A stretch of 64,000 bases of DNA, taken from positions 2,914,001 through 2,978,000 of the forward strand of contig NZ_CP020821.1 of assembly GCF_002105755.1 (NCBI RefSeq). Direction: 5' to 3'. The notes beneath the pieces are model-generated. The model did not search any database. It saw only the letters and a list, made by a program, of their open reading frames with translations, and was not told where the DNA came from. Both the position numbers and the translations under genes were made by a program. The DNA is from Mycobacterium colombiense CECT 3035. GTDB lineage: Bacteria; Actinomycetota; Actinomycetes; Mycobacteriales; Mycobacteriaceae. Shown piece by piece: positions 14,504 through 24,693 of this stretch. Positions within the stretch are counted from its first letter, which is position 1; the number at the start of each line of letters is the position of its first letter.

Positions 14504-15592
14504 ATGGGTGATGCATCGCTGACGGCCGAGCTCGGCCGCGTCCTGGTCACCGGGGGGTCCGGATTCGTCGGCGCCAACCTGGTGACCACCTTGCTCGACC
14601 GCGGGCATCAGGTCCGCTCCTTCGACCGCGCGCCCTCGCCGCTGCCGCCGCACCCGCGGCTGGAGGTGCTGCAGGGCGACATCACCGACACGGCGGTGTG
14701 CGCCCAGGCGGTCGACGGCATCGACACCGTCTTCCACACCGCCGCGATCATCGACCTGATGGGCGGCGCGTCGGTGACCGACGAGTACCGGCAGCGCAGC
14801 TTCGGGGTCAACGTCGGCGGCACCGAGAACCTGGTCCGCGCCGGGCAGGCCGCCGGGGTGCAGCGCTTCGTCTACACCTCGTCCAACAGCGTCGTCATGG
14901 GCGGCCAGAACATCGTCAACGGCGACGAGACGCTGCCCTACACCACGCGGTTCAACGACCTGTACACCGAGACCAAGGTGATCGCCGAGCGATTCGTCCT
15001 GGGCCAGAACGGGGTTGACGGCCTGTTGACGTGTGCCATCCGGCCCAGCGGCATCTGGGGCCGTGGCGATCAGACGATGTTTCGCAAACTGTTCGAGAGC
15101 GTGATCGCCGGCCACGTCAAGGTGCTGATCGGGCGCAAATCGGCCCGGCTGGATAACTCCTACGTGCACAACCTAATTCACGGTTTCATCCTGGCCGCCG
15201 AGCACCTGACGCCCGGCGGCACCGCGCCCGGCCAGGCGTACTTCATCAACGACGCCGAGCCGATCAACATGTTCGAGTTCGCCAGGCCGGTGGTCGAGGC
15301 CTGCGGGGAGAAGTGGCCGCGGGTCCGGGTGAACGGCCCGATCGTGCGCGCGGCGATGACGGGTTGGCAGCGGCTGCACTTTCGGTTCGGGATACCCGCG
15401 CCCCTGCTCGAGCCGCTCGCGGTCGAGCGGTTGTATCTGGACAACTTCTTCTCGATCGCCAAGGCCTCGCGCGATCTCGGCTACCAGCCGCTGTTCAACA
15501 CCGAGCAGGCGCTCACGGAATGCCTGTCGTACTACGTCGACATGTTCGACCAGATGAAGCGACAAGCCCTGGCGGGCAAGGCATCCGCCTAG
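14504..15592 (+). CDS. 3-beta-hydroxysteroid dehydrogenase/isomerase
   Basis: Oxidises the 3-beta-hydroxyl of cholesterol to the 3-keto-4-ene product, the entry step of sterol catabolism. 362 aa, extended SDR family: N-terminal VLVTGGSGFVGANLV (NAD binding), TSSNSVV with the catalytic Ser, and YTETKVIAE with the catalytic Tyr and Lys. Matches Rv1106c in place and size. A KstR-like operator lies just upstream, fitting induction by sterols. Its stop overlaps the stop of the convergent carboxylesterase by 4 bp. Confidence 0.93.
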   Translation: MGDASLTAELGRVLVTGGSGFVGANLVTTLLDRGHQVRSFDRAPSPLPPHPRLEVLQGDITDTAVCAQAVDGIDTVFHTAAIIDLMGGASVTDEYRQRSFGVNVGGTENLVRAGQAAGVQRFVYTSSNSVVMGGQNIVNGDETLPYTTRFNDLYTETKVIAERFVLGQNGVDGLLTCAIRPSGIWGRGDQTMFRKLFESVIAGHVKVLIGRKSARLDNSYVHNLIHGFILAAEHLTPGGTAPGQAYFINDAEPINMFEFARPVVEACGEKWPRVRVNGPIVRAAMTGWQRLHFRFGIPAPLLEPLAVERLYLDNFFSIAKASRDLGYQPLFNTEQALTECLSYYVDMFDQMKRQALAGKASA

Positions 15593-17133
15593 CGGAAGCT
15601 CACCATCTCGCTGCCCCAGGCCGCGCGAATGCCAGCGTCCACGTCGTGCGCGAGGGCGTCGTTGCGGCCGATGATCAGGCAGGCACGGTCGTCGTGGGCA
15701 TACGGCGTCCACTCCGGCTCGCCGGCCGGACCCGCGGGCGAGCCGTGCGCGGCGAAGTTGATCCACCGGGCGCGCACCCTCTTGGACACCGCCTTGGCGG
15801 TTCTGCTACCGCCGAGCTTCAGGGTGGGATCCTTGGGCGCACCGAGAGTGCCCCAGACGTAAGGCAATTCGGTGGCATGCGCGGCGTTGACCATCAGCAG
15901 CTTCAGCAACGGGGTGGCGTAATCGAAGCGGTACAGATAGACGGGCGCCACCCGGCTGTGGCCCTCGGCGAGCCACACCGACGGCATCCGGAAGCCGACG
16001 TCGGTCGCGATGCTCAAACTCCGTGCCTTGCGCCGCATTCGTGAATACGCCGAGCCGATCACCTCTTCGGTGGGCAACTGCAGATCGGGTTGTTCGGCGG
16101 CGATCTGGTTGAACATCGACGTGATCGCACTCGGAGTGATCGGCATCAGCGGCGAGCGCATCAACCGAAACAGCGCCGCCTCGTGCTTGTTTGTGCCGAT
16201 GATCAGCGGGACCGGAAGGGAGCGCCCCTCCTGCGCCAGCTTGACCGGGTAGTCGCTCAGCACGTCGCCGTCGACGATCGGGACGAACGCCAGCCTTCCG
16301 GGGTTGCGCACCGGCACTTCGTCGAACACCTGTTGCGACGCGGTCAGGATGGCCCCCATGGGCAGGTCGAACAGCTTTTGCGATTCCGACGGGGTGACTC
16401 CCAGCCGGTCGAGGAAGGCCTGGGCCACCGGCGCGGCACGCTCGCGGTCGTAAACCGAAGTGGCCGGCGAACTTTGCGCGATCGCCGCGCCGAACAGGCC
16501 CTCGGCCGCCGGGCTGGCCAGCAGGGTGGTGACGATCCCGGCGCCGGCGGACTCGCCGAACAGGGTGACCCGCCGGGGATCGCCGCCGAAGGCGGCGATG
16601 TTGTCGCGCACCCACTCCAGCGCGGCCAGCACGTCGCGCAAGCCGACGTTCGAGTCGAAATGCCGCCCCGCGCCGTCGAACGATGACAGGTCGAGAAAGC
16701 CGAGCACCCCGAGCCGATAGTTGACGGTCACCACGACGACGTCGCCGTGGCTGACCAGCCTGCGGCCGTCATACAGCGTCTGGCTGCTCGACCCCAGGAC
16801 ATAGGCACCGCCGTGCAGCCAGACCATCACCGGCTTGGCGTCACCTGGCCGGGTGGCAGAAGACGCCCAGACGTTGAGCCGCAAGCAGTCCTCGCCCTGC
16901 GGTGCGCCCAAATCCAATGGCATGTTGGGAAATACGGGTTGCGGGCAGGCCGGCCCGAATGCGGTGGCGTCCGCGACCTCGGCGCTGCGCGCTGGCGGCT
17001 GTGGCGCCCGGAATCGCAGCTCGCCGGTGGGGGCGGCCGCGTACCGAATGCCCTTCCACGCCTTGACGTTGTCCTCTGCGATGCCCCGGACCGGACCGTA
17101 ATTGGTTTCGACCACCAGGTCGTCGATTGCCAT
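15589..17133 (-). CDS. type-B carboxylesterase (para-nitrobenzyl esterase-like)
   Basis: 514 aa, full-length alpha/beta-hydrolase of the cholinesterase-like family. Visible are the oxyanion-hole WLHGGAYVLG, the nucleophile elbow FGESAGAG with the catalytic Ser, the EDCLRLNV N-terminal signature, and a His near ATELPYVWG or later. The start is the ATG at 17133 (MAIDDLVVETNYGPVRG). The corresponding M. tuberculosis locus is split between Rv1104 and Rv1105; here it is one continuous gene. The NRPS gene ends only 26 bp upstream on the same strand, so they could be co-transcribed. No signal peptide is visible. Confidence 0.9.
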   Translation of the reverse strand: MAIDDLVVETNYGPVRGIAEDNVKAWKGIRYAAAPTGELRFRAPQPPARSAEVADATAFGPACPQPVFPNMPLDLGAPQGEDCLRLNVWASSATRPGDAKPVMVWLHGGAYVLGSSSQTLYDGRRLVSHGDVVVVTVNYRLGVLGFLDLSSFDGAGRHFDSNVGLRDVLAALEWVRDNIAAFGGDPRRVTLFGESAGAGIVTTLLASPAAEGLFGAAIAQSSPATSVYDRERAAPVAQAFLDRLGVTPSESQKLFDLPMGAILTASQQVFDEVPVRNPGRLAFVPIVDGDVLSDYPVKLAQEGRSLPVPLIIGTNKHEAALFRLMRSPLMPITPSAITSMFNQIAAEQPDLQLPTEEVIGSAYSRMRRKARSLSIATDVGFRMPSVWLAEGHSRVAPVYLYRFDYATPLLKLLMVNAAHATELPYVWGTLGAPKDPTLKLGGSRTAKAVSKRVRARWINFAAHGSPAGPAGEPEWTPYAHDDRACLIIGRNDALAHDVDAGIRAAWGSEMVSFR

Positions 17134-17159
17134 GCGCGTGCGAAATCTTTCGGGTGAGC

Positions 17160-20100
17160 TCAAATGGGACGTGACGTCATTATCGTCGAAGATCGGGGCG
17201 ACGGCGTCGGCGCAGTGCCGCGACCGTGCCGCACATGCGCGCAGATGCCGGTCAGAGCCTCGAACAACAGCTGGTTCAGGCGCTGGATCTGTTCCTCGTC
17301 CAGCGCCGAGGGCGCCCATGCCCATGTCGCATGCAGGCGCTGGCCGGTGCCGGTGTCGAGGAGGGCGGCATTGAATTCCACGGTATGGCCGAGCGGCGTG
17401 GGTATCGCCGACGCCGCGGGGATGGTCGCCATGGCGCCCTCATCGACCCGCCACAGATTGTTGGAGACAGCGGCCGCATCGGCGTCAAACCGCCCGAGAT
17501 AGTTGAATTCGATGGTCGGCTCCGAACCATCCAGTCCCACTTCGGGATTCAGATAGCGCAACACCCCGTAGGTCAGACCGTCGGGCATGGCGCGGAGCCG
17601 TTCTAAAGCGGCCGTGATCAATGGCCCCAGCGGGGCCTCGCCGGCGGCCACGTCCGTCCACGGCAGTTCGCCCATCGTCAGCGCTACCGGGTACTTACAG
17701 GTGAACCACCCCACGGTGCGCGACAGATCAACGTCGCGTCCCAGCTCTTCGGCGCGGCCGTGACCTTTGACGTCGATGCCGATCGGCGCGCCACCCGCGC
17801 CGAGGAATTCATTCCAGGCCAAGCCGAACGCGATCAACAGAATGTCTTGCACCCCAGCGTGAAACACGACCGACACCTCGCCAAGCAACTGGTGAGTGGT
17901 CTCGATGTCCAGGGCCGCCAGCAGGTGGCCCGCTGCGGCGTAGGTGTCGACCGCAGGTCGTACCGCGGGCAATGCGGCGGGGGTCGCCAGCAATCGTCGC
18001 CACGTGTCCGCCAGCTGCACGACCGCCGCGCTGCGCGCGTGCTCACTGAGTACCGACCCCCACCGGGCAAACGACGTTCTGCCGGTGGGCAATTCGACGG
18101 GCTGACCGTGGTGATGTTGCACCCAAGCAATGTTCAAGTCTTCGAACAGGATTCGCCAGGACGGCACATCCACGGACAGGTGGTGAATCATCAACGCCAA
18201 CTGGCCCGTGTCTGGCACCCATAACGCGGTGAACATCGTTCCCGTCCCCGGATTCAAGCGTGACCGCGCGGCCACCAGCGCCTCATCAGACAGCGCATCC
18301 ACCGCCTGCAGGCAGGTTCGGGCGTCCACGGCCCCTACCTCGGGTACCCACAGCGACCAATCGCCGTCGCCGGTGTCCTCGGCACGCAGCCGCAACATAG
18401 CGTGCCGGTCCAGCAGGGCTTGCAACACGACGACCACGTCGGCCTCGGTCACTCCGGCGGGAGCTTGCACCACCACCGTCTGGTTGTACTCATCGACCGG
18501 GCCGTCAAAATCGTGTAGCCAGCGCATGATCGGGGTGGCCACCACCTCGCCGACACCCTCGTCGATGTCTTCTGCGGGGCCGTCGAGCAAAACGGCCACC
18601 TGCGCAAGTCGGGCCACCGTCTGCTCGACGAAGACATCGCGCTGTCGACACAGCACGCCGGCCGCGCGCGCCCGAGCCACCACCTGCATCGACAACACGC
18701 TGTCCCCGCCCAGGTCGAAGAACGAGTCGTCCACGCCGACCCGCTCGATACCGAGGACCTGGGCGTAGATATCGGCCAGAACCTGCTCGATCGCGTCTCC
18801 CGGCGCGCGGTACCGATCGGCGTCCTGGTACTCCGGTGGCGGCAAGGCGCGGGTGTCGAGTTTGCCGTTGACCGTCAGTGGCAGAGCCTGTAGCCCCACG
18901 ACCGCGGCCGGCACCATGTATTCCGGCAGTCGATCCGCCAGCTGCGTGCGCACCTTGACCGGATCGGCGGTCCCCGTGACGTAGCCGACCAGGCGCTTGT
19001 CGCCCGGACGGTCCTCGCGGGCGATCACCGCCGCCTGATCCACTCCGTCCATCTCACCGAGCGCCGCCTTGATCTCGCCCAGCTCGATGCGATATCCGCG
19101 GATTTTGACCTGCTCATCGGCGCGGCCCACATACTGCAGCTGACCATCGGCGTCCCAGCGCACCAGATCGCCGGTGCGATACATGCGTTGTCCAGGCGCC
19201 TCCGCAGAGCCGAACGGGCACGCCACGAACCGCGACGCCGTCAACCCGGACCGACCCCAGTATCCGGAGGTCACTCCCGCACCGGCCACATAGAGCTCAC
19301 CGACGACGCCCGCCGACACCCGACGCAGGAATTTATCCAGCACGAAGAAGGCCAGGTGCTCCAACGGCACGCCGATCGGGCTGACGTTGTTGTCGACGTC
19401 GCCGACGCCGATCTGCCGGAACGAGGCATGCACCGTCGTCTCGGTGATGCCGTACATATTGATCATCCGCGGCGACTCCGGATGATTGCGGAACCATGAC
19501 GCAAGGCGTTGCGGTTCAAGCGCTTCGCCGCCGAAGACCACCGTCTTCAGGCTCAGCCGCCCCGTATCGGGGTGCAGCGCGTCGGCGGTTTGCAGCGCAT
19601 GAAAGGCCGACGGGGTCTGGCTCAAGACGCTGACCTGTTCGCGCACCAGCAGGGCGTGGAATTCTTCCGACGAACGAACGACACCGTCCGGCACCACCAA
19701 CAGCCGCCCGCCGCACAGCAGCGGGGCCCAGATCTCCCAGACGGAGTAATCGAAAGCCAGGGAATGACACTGCGTCCACACCTGTCCCCGCGCCAGTTCG
19801 GCGTCGAGTGACTCGAGGAGCTGGGTCACATTACGGTGCGTGACGGCCACGCCCTTGGGCGTGCCGGTGGTGCCCGAGGTGTAGACGAGGTAGGCGAGAT
19901 TGCCGGCGGCGGGGACCGGCAACGCGCCGCCGGACTGCGCGTCGATGGCGGAGTCATTGACGTCGATGACGGCCACGTCGGACGCATCCACCCGCAGACG
20001 CAGGTCCGCGGTGGTGATCACGGCGATCGGTGCAGCGTCTCCCAGGACCAACTCGATGCGGGCGTCGGGATGTGCTGGATCCATCGGGACGTATGCCGCG

Positions 20101-20480
20101 CCAGTCTTGATCACCGCCAGGACCGCCACGATGGCCTCGGCGCAGCGCGGCAGCAGCATCGCCACGCGCTCACCGGGGGCCGCGCCGCGACCAACGAGCA
20201 GGTGCGCCAACCGATTCGATGCCGCGTCCAGCTCGCCGTAGGTCATCGAGCGGCTCCCGCAGGTGATCGCTACCGCCTCCGCGTCGCGGGCCACCTGCGT
20301 CGCGAACAATTCGGGAATTGAGAACGGCCGGCGGGCCGGCTGTGCCAGCACCGCTCGGTTGCCCCATTCGTCGAGCTGGCTGTGTTCATCGGCATCGAGC
20401 AAGTCGATCGACAACAACCTTTTAGCCGGGTCGGCGGGTATGGCCGCCGGTAACGCGCCGCAATCAGATTCCATTTGCAC
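17160..20480 (-). CDS. orphan single-module NRPS: adenylation - carrier - epimerisation (A-T-E)
   Basis: 1106 aa. Residues 1-50 are a typical condensation-to-adenylation linker ([20 protein letters not shown]), but no condensation domain precedes it. A domain ~52-550: [38 protein letters not shown], catalytic K540 in NGKLD. By-eye specificity residues D,Y,W,S,V,G,M,V,H,K resemble the threonine code. Carrier domain ~560-630 with Ser594 in DLGGDSV. Epimerisation domain ~645-1085: [44 protein letters not shown]; the conserved Glu of EGHGR is Lys905 (VKGHGR). GTG start at 20480 (ATG at 20474 alternative); a TGA at 20484-20486 closes the frame upstream. Looks like a detached D-allo-Thr module of a glycopeptidolipid-type synthetase. 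Confidence 0.92.
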
Positions 20481-20768
20481 CGTTCACAGGCCGAGAGCTG
20501 CCATAAGGTCCAGCGATATCAGGCACACCGATTTTCCTCAGCCCCCTGGACGACATAGCGAAATGTTCCGAATTGTACTCAGAGATAACGTGACCCGTCC
20601 CGGTTTCCGACTCGCCAAAGTCGACGCAATAGGCTCGCGCTGGACCCGCGAAATGGTAGACAGGGGCGGCGTACATCCGCCGCGCACCTGGAGCCGCAAC
20701 CGGACTCGGTAGTTCCGGATGCGGTGCGTCGGCGCCCGGGCGCGATGACCGAAAGTTTGAGATCCGTC

Positions 20769-22043
20769 ATGAGATTTGCGCTGGCTAGCTATGGAACTCG
20801 AGGCGATATCGAGCCGTCTGTCGTTGTTGGCCGCGAACTGCAGCGCAGAGGGCATGACGTGTGCATCGCCGTCCCGCCCGACCTGGTCGGCTTCGCGCAA
20901 TCGGCCGGCCTCTCCGCGATCCCCTACGGAGCCGAGACGAACGCTTGGATGGATGCGTTCCGCAAATTCAGCACGACCCTGTTCAGCAGGTTTTGGAGAG
21001 TTCGGGACATATCGCGGTCGGGGCGCGAAATCAAGGAGGTCACCAACCAGTCTTGGGCACAGATGAGCGGGACACTGAAGTCGCTGGCGGAGGGAGCCGA
21101 CCTGGTGCTCGCCGGGCAGACCTACCAGGAGATCGCCGCCAATGTGGCGGAATATCACGGTCTTCCGTTGGTCACGCTGCACCACGTCCCGATGCGGCCC
21201 AACGGCCAGGTTGTGGCGATCTTGCCGGCGCCGGCGTCTCGCTTCGCGGTGCGGGTGTTCGACTGGCTGACTTGGCGCCTGAGCAAAAAGCTCGAGGACG
21301 CGCAGCGCAGCGACCTCGGCCTACCGAAGACAACGTCGTCCTCGCCGCGACGGATTGCCGCATTGAGAGCATTGGAAATTCAGGCATACGACGAGGTGGC
21401 ATTCCCGGGGCTGGCAGCTGAATGGGCGAGATGGAAAGACCAGCGGCCCTTCGTCGGCGCGCTGACGATGGAGTTGGCGACGAGCGCCGATGACGAAGTC
21501 GCATCGTGGATTGCCGCGGGCACGCCGCCGATTTTCTTCGGCTTCGGCAGCATGCCGGTGGAATCTCCGTCCGACACGGTCGAGATGATCAGTGGAGCCT
21601 GCGCGCAATTGGGTGAGCGGGCGTTGATTTGCGCCGGCTGGAGCGACTTCGACAACGTCCCGCATTCCGATCACGTCAAAATGGTCGCGGCGGTGAACTA
21701 CGCGTCCATCTTTCCCCTCTGCCGCGCGGCCGTGCACCATGGCGGCTCGGGCACCACGGCCGCAAGTTTGCGTGCCGGAATTCCGACGCTGGTCCTGTCC
21801 GTGGACGGTAATCAGATCATCTGGGGAGCTCAGGTGAAACGACGCCTGAAGGTGGGCACCCACCGCCGCCTATCGGCCGCTACCCGGGCATCGCTCGTCG
21901 CAGATCTGCGCCGAATCTTGGCGCCTGAGTATGCGAGCCGCGCCCGCGAGCTTGCCGCCCGGATGACGACACCCGCCGAAAGCGTCGCCAAGGCCGCAGA
22001 CCTGACCGAGAACTTCGCCGGCTCGAGGCGAAGTGCCCGGTAG
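20769..22043 (+). CDS. GT1 glycosyltransferase, glycopeptidolipid/UGT type
   Basis: 424 aa from the ATG at 20769 (MRFALASYGTRGDIEP). GT-B fold: N-terminal acceptor domain starting with the YGTRGD motif typical of mycobacterial Gtf/Rtf and sterol glycosyltransferases, and a C-terminal donor domain with FFGFGSMPV and HHGGSGTTAASLRAGIPTL, the nucleotide-sugar signature. Likely transfers a 6-deoxyhexose or glucose to a hydroxyl of a peptide, lipid or sterol; the acceptor is unknown. It is divergent from the NRPS gene across 288 bp of non-coding DNA and converges on the dienelactone hydrolase gene (5 bp gap). The segment looks less GC-rich than the flanks by eye. Confidence 0.88.
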   Translation: MRFALASYGTRGDIEPSVVVGRELQRRGHDVCIAVPPDLVGFAQSAGLSAIPYGAETNAWMDAFRKFSTTLFSRFWRVRDISRSGREIKEVTNQSWAQMSGTLKSLAEGADLVLAGQTYQEIAANVAEYHGLPLVTLHHVPMRPNGQVVAILPAPASRFAVRVFDWLTWRLSKKLEDAQRSDLGLPKTTSSSPRRIAALRALEIQAYDEVAFPGLAAEWARWKDQRPFVGALTMELATSADDEVASWIAAGTPPIFFGFGSMPVESPSDTVEMISGACAQLGERALICAGWSDFDNVPHSDHVKMVAAVNYASIFPLCRAAVHHGGSGTTAASLRAGIPTLVLSVDGNQIIWGAQVKRRLKVGTHRRLSAATRASLVADLRRILAPEYASRARELAARMTTPAESVAKAADLTENFAGSRRSAR

Positions 22044-22048
22044 GGCGC

Positions 22049-22846
22049 CTAGCTGAGCCGCTCGGTGAGGAACTCGACCACGCGCTTGCGGGCCTCGTAG
22101 GCGGGGTGGCCGTCGATTTCGCGGACCTCGTCGGTGAGCACCGAGTGCGCCATCTTGCCGAAGCCGTGCTGATTGTTTGGGCCCGAGTCGATGTCGATCA
22201 CCTCGAAGGCGTCGCCGAGGCGCTGCTTGAGCGTCGCGAACCGCTCGCCGGGCGCCGTCTTGTCCTCGCTGAACCGCAGGCCCATGGCGCACAGGCCGTC
22301 GGTGGCGCACCGATCGGCCACGGTGGTCAGCTCCGACTCGCTCAGCCCGGGATCACGCCGCCGCGCGGCACCCAGCGGGAACGGGACCGACGGCTGCGAA
22401 AGCACCGGCGCCAGCACGCTGTCGTCCACCGCGGCGGCCAGCGCGAATCCGCCGGTGAAGCACTGGCCGATCACGCCGACACCCTTGCCCGGCGTGGCGG
22501 CGTTGAGGTCGCGCGCGAGCGCTCGCAGGAACGCCGCTACCGGCCGCTGCTTGTTCAGCGCGAGCGCCGCGAATTCCCTTGCCACGCAGGCCCGCGTGAT
22601 CGCGCCGACTAGGTACCCGGCCGTCTTGGCCTTGCCCGGCTCGCCGAACAGCGATGGCATGGCGACGGTGAAGCCGTTGTCCACCAGGTGATTACCCAAG
22701 CCCAGTACACCGGGATGGATCCCGGGCAGCTCCGGAATCAGCACCACGCCGGGGCCGCTGCCCTTGCGGTAGACGTCGTGGGTGTAGCCGCCACCGCTGA
22801 ACGGCGCCGCCGACCATCCGGACAGATCGGCCTCCGGTGCGCCCAT
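22049..22846 (-). CDS. dienelactone hydrolase-family protein
   Basis: 265 aa from the ATG at 22846 ([11 protein letters not shown]). Alpha/beta-hydrolase with a Cys nucleophile: [13 protein letters not shown] (Cys in G-x-C-x-G-G), oxyanion segment [13 protein letters not shown], and His in [11 protein letters not shown]. The fold hydrolyses lactone or ester bonds; the physiological substrate is unknown. It starts 11 bp past the DUF4245 stop, so the two are probably one transcript. Confidence 0.85.
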
Positions 22847-23613: not shown

Positions 23614-24693
23614 ATGACAGTTGAGGGCGACCGCTCGACCGCCACCGCCGGCCGGGCCTCAGCGCAGGGACGACCGCGCGGTGAGGCTCCGGACCGCAAC
23701 CTGGCTTTGGAACTGGTACGCGTCACCGAGGCTGGTGCCATGGCCGCAGGTCGCTGGGTAGGCCGCGGCGACAAAGAGGGCGGCGACGGGGCGGCCGTCG
23801 ACGCGATGCGCGAGCTGGTCAACTCGGTGTCGATGCGCGGCGTCGTCGTCATCGGCGAGGGTGAGAAGGACCACGCGCCGATGCTCTACAACGGCGAGGA
23901 GGTCGGCAACGGCGACGGCGCGGAGTGCGACTTCGCCGTCGACCCCATCGACGGCACCACGCTGATGAGCAAGGGCATGCCCAACGCCATCTCCGTGCTG
24001 GCGGTGGCCGACCGGGGGGCGATGTTCGATCCGTCGGCGGTCTTCTACATGAACAAGGTCGCCGTCGGCCCCGAGGCCGCGCACGTGCTCGATATCACCG
24101 CCCCGATCGCCGAGAACATCAAGGCCGTCGCCAAGGTGAAGGCGCTGTCGGTGCGGGACATGACCGTGTGCATCCTGGACCGGCCGCGGCACGCCAAGCT
24201 GATCGAGGATGTACGGGCCACCGGGGCCCGGATCCGGCTGATCACCGACGGCGACGTCGCCGGCGCCATCTCGGCCTGCCGGCCGCACTCGGGCACCGAC
24301 ATGCTGGCCGGCATCGGCGGCACGCCGGAGGGCATCATCGCCGCCGCCGCGATCCGCTGCATGGGCGGCGCCATCCAGGCGCAGCTGGCTCCCACCGACG
24401 ACGAGGAACGCCAGAAGGCCATCGACGCCGGTTACGACCTCGACCGCGTGCTGACCACCGAGGACCTGGTCTCCGGCGAGAACGTGTTCTTCTGCGCCAC
24501 CGGGGTCACCAACGGCGACCTGCTCAAGGGCGTGCAGTACTACCCCGGCGGCTGCACGACGCAGTCGATCGTGATGCGGTCGAAGTCGGGAACCGTCCGG
24601 ATGATCGAGGCCTACCACCGGCTTTCGAAACTCAACGAGTACTCCGCCATCGACTTCATTGGCGATAGCTCCGCCGCCTACCCCCTGCCCTGA
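23614..24693 (+). CDS. glpX: fructose-1,6-bisphosphatase class II
   Basis: Dephosphorylates fructose-1,6-bisphosphate in gluconeogenesis. 359 aa from the ATG at 23614; the open frame extends far upstream but without homology. Metal- and substrate-binding motifs: [46 protein letters not shown]. It is the only essential FBPase type in mycobacteria (Rv1099c). fum follows 30 bp downstream, so glpX-fum is likely an operon linking the TCA cycle and gluconeogenesis. Confidence 0.95.

What the first reader, a model, noticed from the sequence alone, without database searches (positions are those of the whole stretch)
17160..22043. Orphan A-T-E NRPS module beside a divergent GPL-type glycosyltransferase in a conserved housekeeping slot
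Between the carboxylesterase (Rv1104/1105 position) and the DUF4245 gene (Rv1100) M. tuberculosis has mazEF3 and Rv1101c. Here the slot holds one NRPS module without a condensation domain and a GT1 glycosyltransferase of the Gtf/Rtf style. No condensation, reductase, methyltransferase or MbtH gene is near, so the pair cannot build a peptide alone. It may load and hand over an aminoacyl unit in trans, make a small glycosylated amino-acid derivative, or be a detached remnant of a glycopeptidolipid synthetase. Spacing (26 bp) also ties the NRPS to the esterase, which might act as a release enzyme.
Basis: partly seen in the sequence, partly recalled or inferred. Interest (0 to 1): 0.72.

Follow-up and report, generated by a model that had tools for sequence, protein, structure and literature searches.

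The report
Threonine synthetase with altered epimerase
An environmental mycobacterium carries a compact two-gene unit, derived from the machinery that makes its surface glycolipids, in which an enzyme predicted to grab threonine has lost a key residue for flipping its handedness and sits beside a sugar-adding enzyme; what it makes is unknown but testable.

Summary
The pair is real: a C-less A-T-E NRPS (17160-20474, -) and a divergent glycosyltransferase (20724-22043, +), both intact and under purifying selection. It is a ~4.9-kb insertion: esterase and DLH-hydrolase genes lie 13-93 bp apart in 17 of the 20 genomes with the most similar esterases, 4.8-4.9 kb apart in 3. Orthologous pairs occur in 6 of 396 mycobacterial genomes, in three slots and three orientations. 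A and E domains nest among Mps1 threonine modules of other species, not the host's own; the GT groups with GtfA, which glycosylates that threonine. New: all 6 proteins have Lys at the E domain's catalytic Glu (Glu in 36 of 36 other E domains aligned) and lack the C-terminal LTPS linker (0 of 6 vs 36 of 36). So the module probably loads L-threonine, does not epimerise it, and does not hand it on in the usual way. Best reading: a threonine-loading platform for the linked GT. A decaying remnant or an esterase release step is not supported. Product unknown.

The parts
17149..22047 (.). inserted ~4.9-kb block (boundaries by comparison with empty sites; right edge less exact)
   Evidence: Seven nearest empty sites match the window up to 17148; right-hand matches resume at 22048-22056 in five sites and at 22065 in the seven nearest; gaps; no repeats of 16 nt or more at both ends
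17160..20474 (-). stand-alone NRPS, A-T-E*, 1104 aa from the shared ATG
18837..20321 (-). adenylation domain, residues 54-548; pocket residues D-Y-W-S-V-G-M-V-H, threonine type
   Evidence: same pocket type in Mps1 module 2; threonine assignment by homology and recalled code
18591..18803 (-). thiolation domain with intact GGDS attachment site
17199..18563 (-). E* domain: epimerisation-type fold, HHxxxD kept
17766..17768 (-). codon AAA = Lys905 at the catalytic Glu position of the EGHGRE motif
17163..17225 (-). C-terminal tail lacking the LTPS(D) linker seen in other mycobacterial E domains
20724..22043 (+). GtfA-like GT-B glycosyltransferase (start possibly ATG 20745 or 20769)
15589..17133 (-). 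carboxylesterase, flank, not part of the unit
22049..22756 (-). dienelactone-hydrolase-like gene, other flank, not part of the unit

Best explanation
A two-gene unit derived from glycopeptidolipid (GPL) biosynthesis that has moved between genomic slots. SHOWN by sequence: an intact stand-alone A-T-E* protein whose A and E domains descend from an Mps1 threonine module, linked in all six genomes to a GtfA-like glycosyltransferase; E* has Lys for the catalytic Glu and no LTPS docking linker. INFERRED: the A domain activates L-threonine and loads it on T; E* does not epimerise it, so it stays L-Thr-S-T (L-Thr and D-allo-Thr share the 3R hydroxyl that GtfA's lineage glycosylates); the linked GT adds a deoxysugar (dTDP-6-deoxytalose or dTDP-rhamnose) to the threonine hydroxyl, on the carrier or just after release; E* acts as a shield or as a platform for the GT rather than as an enzyme. 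SyrB1 (loads Thr for a trans tailoring enzyme) and the X domain (inactive C-type domain that recruits tailoring enzymes) are the working models. The release step and the final acceptor are unknown.
For: Pair co-occurs in 6 of 396 genomes in three slots and three relative orientations (divergent, convergent, co-directional). A and E trees: six orphans together at 100/100, inside an Mps1 module-2 group; GT tree: the same six plus G259 at 100/100, in a 100/99 group that holds gtfA, with gtfA and rtfA told apart by published primers. Threonine-type pocket in the six, one position varying V/A/I. dN/dS of E* (0.18-0.24 against G000) is like that of A (0.18-0.22). Lys at the catalytic Glu 6 of 6 vs Glu 36 of 36; in 168 genomes 470 Glu-type pattern sites, 6 Lys-type sites of which 4 are orphans and 2 not coding. 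12 of 16 family-specific changes at conserved columns fall in E (12/169 vs 2/196 in A, Fisher p=0.004). LTPS linker 0 of 6 vs 36 of 36. Gtf1/GtfA glycosylates D-allo-Thr (PMC11549994, passages). Precedents SyrB1 and X domain (PMC8949500, passages).
Against: No product, transcript or activity is known. GtfA works on a lipopeptide, not on a carrier-bound amino acid, and one narrow search for carrier-bound glycosylation returned no paper. No obvious release enzyme or acceptor belongs to the pair. Lys could still act as a base, so 'no epimerisation' is an inference. HHxxxD is kept, which X domains do not keep. In M. colombiense GF76 a Gap/Sap-like (SfLAP) gene sits between the two, hinting at a lipid product rather than a free amino acid. 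G259 has the GT without the NRPS orthologue, so the GT can persist alone.
Confidence: 0.42

Rival explanations
1. Trans-acting GPL variant module: the A-T-E* protein replaces or supplements a subunit at the Mps1/Mps2 junction, adding a threonine to a GPL-like lipopeptide, which the linked GT then glycosylates. Mps2 itself begins at the C-A linker and uses the last C domain of Mps1.
For: The orphan N-terminus begins at the same C-A linker as Mps2, and 5 of 6 orphans carry the LLS form seen in 10 of 10 Mps2 starts read, while the internal linkers aligned with them read LSS, MSS or LAS. All six carriers also hold a 3.4-3.5-kaa Mps1-type gene.
Against: Window identity does not place the N-terminal segment with Mps2, so the motif may be convergence at a free N-terminus. 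The C-terminal linker is lost and a downstream D-specific C domain would meet an unepimerised residue. The known GPL core has one threonine.
Confidence: 0.2
2. E* has become an aminoacyl-transfer (C-like) domain: with HHxxxD kept and Glu changed to Lys, it moves threonine from T to a sugar or lipid acceptor made by or presented to the GT.
For: HHxxxD kept 6 of 6; E* under about the same constraint as A; 12 family-specific changes concentrate in E*.
Against: Fold still closest to true E domains; no evidence for an acceptor site; no precedent that I could name.
Confidence: 0.15
3. Non-functional leftover of a GPL locus, spread passively with neighbouring genes.
For: Patchy distribution (6 of 396); lost linker and catalytic Glu; a decayed GPL fragment (starter C domain plus start of A) lies beside the GT orthologue in M. 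ahvazicum.
Against: Six intact copies with dN/dS about 0.2 over dS up to 0.75, in E* as in A; pair kept in three arrangements; the A and T motifs looked at are intact.
Confidence: 0.13
4. Working A-T-E initiation module that feeds D-allo-threonine to a distant synthetase, as GrsA or TycA does.
For: Same domain order; stand-alone; HHxxxD intact.
Against: Catalytic Glu is Lys 6 of 6; LTPS(D) linker lost 6 of 6. No matched partner subunit was seen, but none was searched for systematically.
Confidence: 0.1

Closest known systems
Mps1 module 2 (D-allo-threonine) of glycopeptidolipid synthetase
   Same: A and E domains nest inside this clade; up to 72% identity over the module, 68% to the host's own; same A-pocket type
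   Different: Stand-alone, no C domain, Lys for catalytic Glu, no LTPS linker
GtfA / Gtf1, GPL 6-deoxytalosyltransferase
   Same: Same 100/99 group, 69% identity to the genome's own gtfA
   Different: Outside the GPL locus, separate 100/100 clade, beside the orphan NRPS in six genomes; acceptor unknown
GrsA / TycA A-T-E initiation modules
   Same: Domain order and folds
   Different: Catalytic Glu and donor docking tail lost
SyrB1 stand-alone [A-T] threonine loader
   Same: Separate threonine-loading protein with a trans tailoring enzyme (PMC8949500, passages)
   Different: Here an extra E* domain, a glycosyltransferase instead of a halogenase, no known shuttle or acceptor line
X domain of glycopeptide-antibiotic synthetases
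   Same: C-superfamily domain without its reaction, beside tailoring enzymes (PMC8949500, passages; 4tx2/4tx3 listed)
   Different: Descends from E domains; HHxxxD kept; recruitment untested
GL8P locus of M. abscessus
   Same: GPL-related peptide with sugar on a threonine hydroxyl (PMC11978893: abstract, one section, passages)
   Different: Full two-protein, eight-module synthetase

Membership tests
A-T-E initiation module (GrsA/TycA type) | A, T and E domains in this order, no C domain | tested here: met
A-T-E initiation module (GrsA/TycA type) | intact E-domain catalytic His and Glu (HHxxxD and EGHGRE) | tested here: not met
   His motif kept, Glu replaced by Lys in 6 of 6
A-T-E initiation module (GrsA/TycA type) | C-terminal TPSD/COM donor region | tested here: not met
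   LTPS 0 of 6 vs 36 of 36 others; role of TPSD from PMC11546977 passage
Mps1 module-2 lineage | A and E domains within that clade | tested here: met
   orphan group 100/100; fork joining it to other Mps1 module-2 rows 97/97 (A) and 100/99 (E); trees rooted at midpoint only
GtfA/Gtf1 glycosyltransferases | sequence clade membership | tested here: met
   within a 100/99 group of 22 rows that holds gtfA, branching order inside it unresolved
GtfA/Gtf1 glycosyltransferases | transfer of 6-deoxytalose to allo-threonine of the GPL core | not testable with these tools
   needs assay
SyrB1-type stand-alone loading module | threonine-specific A domain on a separate protein with a linked trans tailoring enzyme | tested here: inconclusive
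   predicted from sequence and linkage only
SyrB1-type stand-alone loading module | shuttle and acceptor module lacking an A domain | tested here: inconclusive
   none seen in the genes scanned beside the pair; genome-wide only C-superfamily domains were listed
X domain | mutated HHxxxDG motif | tested here: not met
   HHxxxD kept, only the last G differs
X domain | recruits a tailoring enzyme | not testable with these tools
   needs binding assay

The most novel reading that the evidence does not exclude
A conserved pseudo-epimerase: an E domain that swapped its catalytic Glu for Lys and became a docking platform bringing a glycosyltransferase to a single carrier-bound threonine, giving on-carrier glycosylation of one amino acid as a two-gene, transferable unit.
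Probability: 0.2. Interest if true: 0.82.

Novelty: new variant of a known kind. Interest (0 to 1): 0.6.

Why it matters
Orphan NRPS modules are usually set aside as debris. This one is a small, testable system: one loader, one sugar transferase, one altered catalytic residue shared by six genomes. It could tell what an E domain does once it stops epimerising, whether single amino acids are glycosylated on a carrier, and whether M. avium-complex species make an unrecognised threonine glycoconjugate beside their GPLs.

Tried and rejected
Chimera of Mps2 head and Mps1 body: suggested by the LLS motif, not supported by window identities. Esterase as release enzyme: not supported, since the esterase keeps its place without the NRPS. 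Missing MbtH as an objection: four MbtH genes lie elsewhere and MbtH cross-talk is reported (PMC3537567, passages). The lone C domain beside the GT in M. ahvazicum is a remnant of an Mps1 starter C domain, not a partner. The two other Lys-type pattern hits (G114, G062) are not E domains: stop codons lie around them. Stops that one search lists inside the G070, G388 and G133 matches lie beyond the natural stop codon, in the tail. E* model: the KGHGR stretch has lower confidence than in the Mps1 E domain (10-residue block mean 56 vs 72); too weak to use. Promoter/terminator scan: nothing found. Repeats: none flanking the block.

Rows dropped: 11 duplicate GT rows and an uncounted number of short ones before the GT tree (56 kept); before the 36 vs 6 count, one row that is a C domain and one divergent E domain that keeps Glu (L051), then two near-duplicates (42 of 44 kept). 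One query (glpX, 23750-24693) was cut out of frame by me; its rows are not used. One search stopped with an error after four of six pocket rows; the other two were read. Literature: 10 searches; no listed title or abstract start named this pair; most subscription papers are not in that library.
Full report
WHAT IS THERE. The window lies in a complete 5,581,643-base Mycobacterium genome. The NRPS (17160-20474, -) has A, T and a condensation-superfamily domain in E position; the divergent GT (20724-22043, +) is a GT-B enzyme with EryCIII-like C-terminus.

AN INSERTED BLOCK. Esterase and DLH orthologues were sought in 396 genomes (each lists only its best rows). Among the 20 genomes with esterase identity of 86% or more (own included), the two genes are 13-93 bp apart in 17 and 4,786-4,918 bp apart in 3 (G000, G070, G388). 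I fetched 12 short-gap sites. The seven nearest match the window up to 17148; on the right the match resumes at 22048-22056 in the five others and at 22065 in the seven nearest. No repeat of 16 nt or more flanks the block and no third gene was recognised in it. Thus the NRPS-esterase proximity is a by-product of insertion. Synonymous divergence of the NRPS between G000 and G070 (0.28) is below that of four flanking genes (0.39-0.46), while between G070 and G388 (0.29) it is above them (0.18-0.27); this suggests exchange between species rather than plain descent, but is not a formal test.

A PAIR THAT STAYS TOGETHER. Searching 396 genomes with the NRPS gave six stand-alone orthologues (75-100%; own included); the next match is 72%, inside a 3,445-aa Mps1-type protein. 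The GT gave the same six plus G259 (76%; next best 70%). In G000, G070 and G388 the pair is divergent in the esterase/DLH slot; in G133 and G111 convergent beside an S49 peptidase; in G142 co-directional with an SfLAP (Gap/Sap-like) gene between. G388's length equals that I recall for M. intracellulare ATCC 13950; this name comes from no call. All six also hold an Mps1-type gene.

ORIGIN. Separate A (47 rows) and E (32 rows) trees put the six orphans together at 100/100, inside Mps1 module-2 sequences of G304, G021, G065, G214, G194 and G012, and away from the host's own Mps1 module 2. Hence it is not a truncated copy of the host's mps1. The GT tree (56 rows) puts the orphan GTs with G259 at 100/100, in a 100/99 group of 22 rows that holds gtfA; the branching order inside that group is unresolved. 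gtfA and rtfA were told apart by the published primers. GtfA/Gtf1 adds 6-deoxytalose to D-allo-Thr (PMC11549994, passages); the GPL core is D-Phe-D-alloThr-D-Ala-L-alaninol (PMC3537567, passages). So the pair unites a descendant of the threonine module with a relative of the enzyme that glycosylates that threonine.

SPECIFICITY. Read off by anchors that I set, the A pocket is D-Y-W-S-x-G-M-V-H in the six, x being V in G000 and G070, A in G388, I in G142, G133 and G111. Mps1 module-2 proteins of the sister lineages read the same type, with Y or F at the second position. The threonine code itself is recalled; the assignment rests on homology.

THE ALTERED E DOMAIN. In the EGHGRE motif, aligned by HMMER to tyrocidine synthetase 1 (9bfd, 2xhg: Glu; 9bfg: Ala), the orphan has Lys905. 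Lys is found in 6 of 6 orphans; Glu in 36 of 36 other mycobacterial E domains aligned (two rows set aside beforehand, see Tried and rejected). In 168 genomes a pattern for [DN]VEGHGR matched 470 sites in 110 genomes (sites not checked one by one); the Lys version matched 6 sites: four orphans and two sites with stop codons around them. G142 was among the 168 but its orphan motif differs beside the Lys; G388 was not among them. That this Glu is catalytic is recalled (number 882 in TycA too) and fits the Ala variant in 9bfg. The HHxxxD motif is kept in all six; the following G is V or A, as A also is in several relatives that keep Glu. Family-specific changes at otherwise conserved columns: E 12 of 169, A 2 of 196, T 2 of 48 (E vs A Fisher p=0.004; changes on one branch are not fully independent). 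Yet E* is as constrained as A: dN/dS against G000 0.18-0.24 for E*, 0.18-0.22 for A. The LTPS linker that ends other mycobacterial E domains (0 of 6 orphans, 36 of 36 others) corresponds to the TPSD fusion site of donor docking domains (PMC11546977, passage). AlphaFold gives E* mean pLDDT 85.8 and its best PDB neighbours are true E domains.

MECHANISM. Shown by sequence: intact loading motifs, threonine-type pocket, lineage, linkage, altered E, lost linker. Inferred: L-Thr is loaded and kept; the GT sugars its hydroxyl; E* serves as platform or shield. The review PMC8949500 (passages) supplies both halves of the analogy: SyrB1 loads threonine for a trans halogenase, and X domains are inactive C-type domains that recruit tailoring P450s. 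The release step is not explained; the SfLAP gene in G142 leaves a lipid product open.

WHAT SPEAKS AGAINST. Patchy presence (most near relatives lack the pair), a GT orthologue without the NRPS in G259, no product, no transcript, no release enzyme belonging to the unit, and the GT lineage's known substrate is a lipopeptide. Lys may retain some base function. Therefore confidence in the full mechanism is moderate, whereas confidence that this is a maintained, non-canonical loading unit is higher.

NOVELTY. Ten literature searches (listed under Tried and rejected) surfaced no paper on this pair or on a Glu-to-Lys E domain; this covers an open-licence library only, mostly by listing. The large protein database could not be queried, so the spread outside Mycobacterium is untested. 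I rate it a new variant of a known kind.

Noticed in passing
G000:C1 732000-758000 and 985000-1020000 (L045-L048): Other large NRPS loci of this genome show overlapping long frames that look frame-shifted (sequencing error or real); described only, nothing mended.
   Followed up: no
L041:9600-16876 (M. ahvazicum, G259): GT orthologue (77%) beside two more GPL-type GTs, a methyltransferase and a truncated Mps1 starter-C domain: looks like a decayed second GPL locus.
   Followed up: partly
L038:10185-11021 (M. colombiense GF76): An SfLAP (Gap/Sap-like) gene lies between the NRPS and the GT, reading the same way; not between them in the other two slots.
   Followed up: partly
L065:12-680 (Mycobacterium sp. 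E1747): A GT fragment 80% identical at a contig edge; no esterase/DLH-slot gene matched in the 10 kb held beyond it, so perhaps a further slot; the other side is off the contig.
   Followed up: partly
window 22020-22080: The last bases of DLH in the window resemble those of other lineages (G072, G155, G349) rather than of the nearest relatives, a possible recombination scar beside the insert.
   Followed up: no
L039:13457-16934 versus L040: G133 has about 3 kb extra (TetR-type regulator, amino-acid permease) right of the NRPS compared with G111.
   Followed up: no
Mps2 N-termini (L044, L088-L096): 10 of 10 Mps2 proteins read start at a C-A linker with LLS, whereas the internal linkers aligned with them read LSS, MSS or LAS: a possible subunit-boundary signature.
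   Followed up: partly
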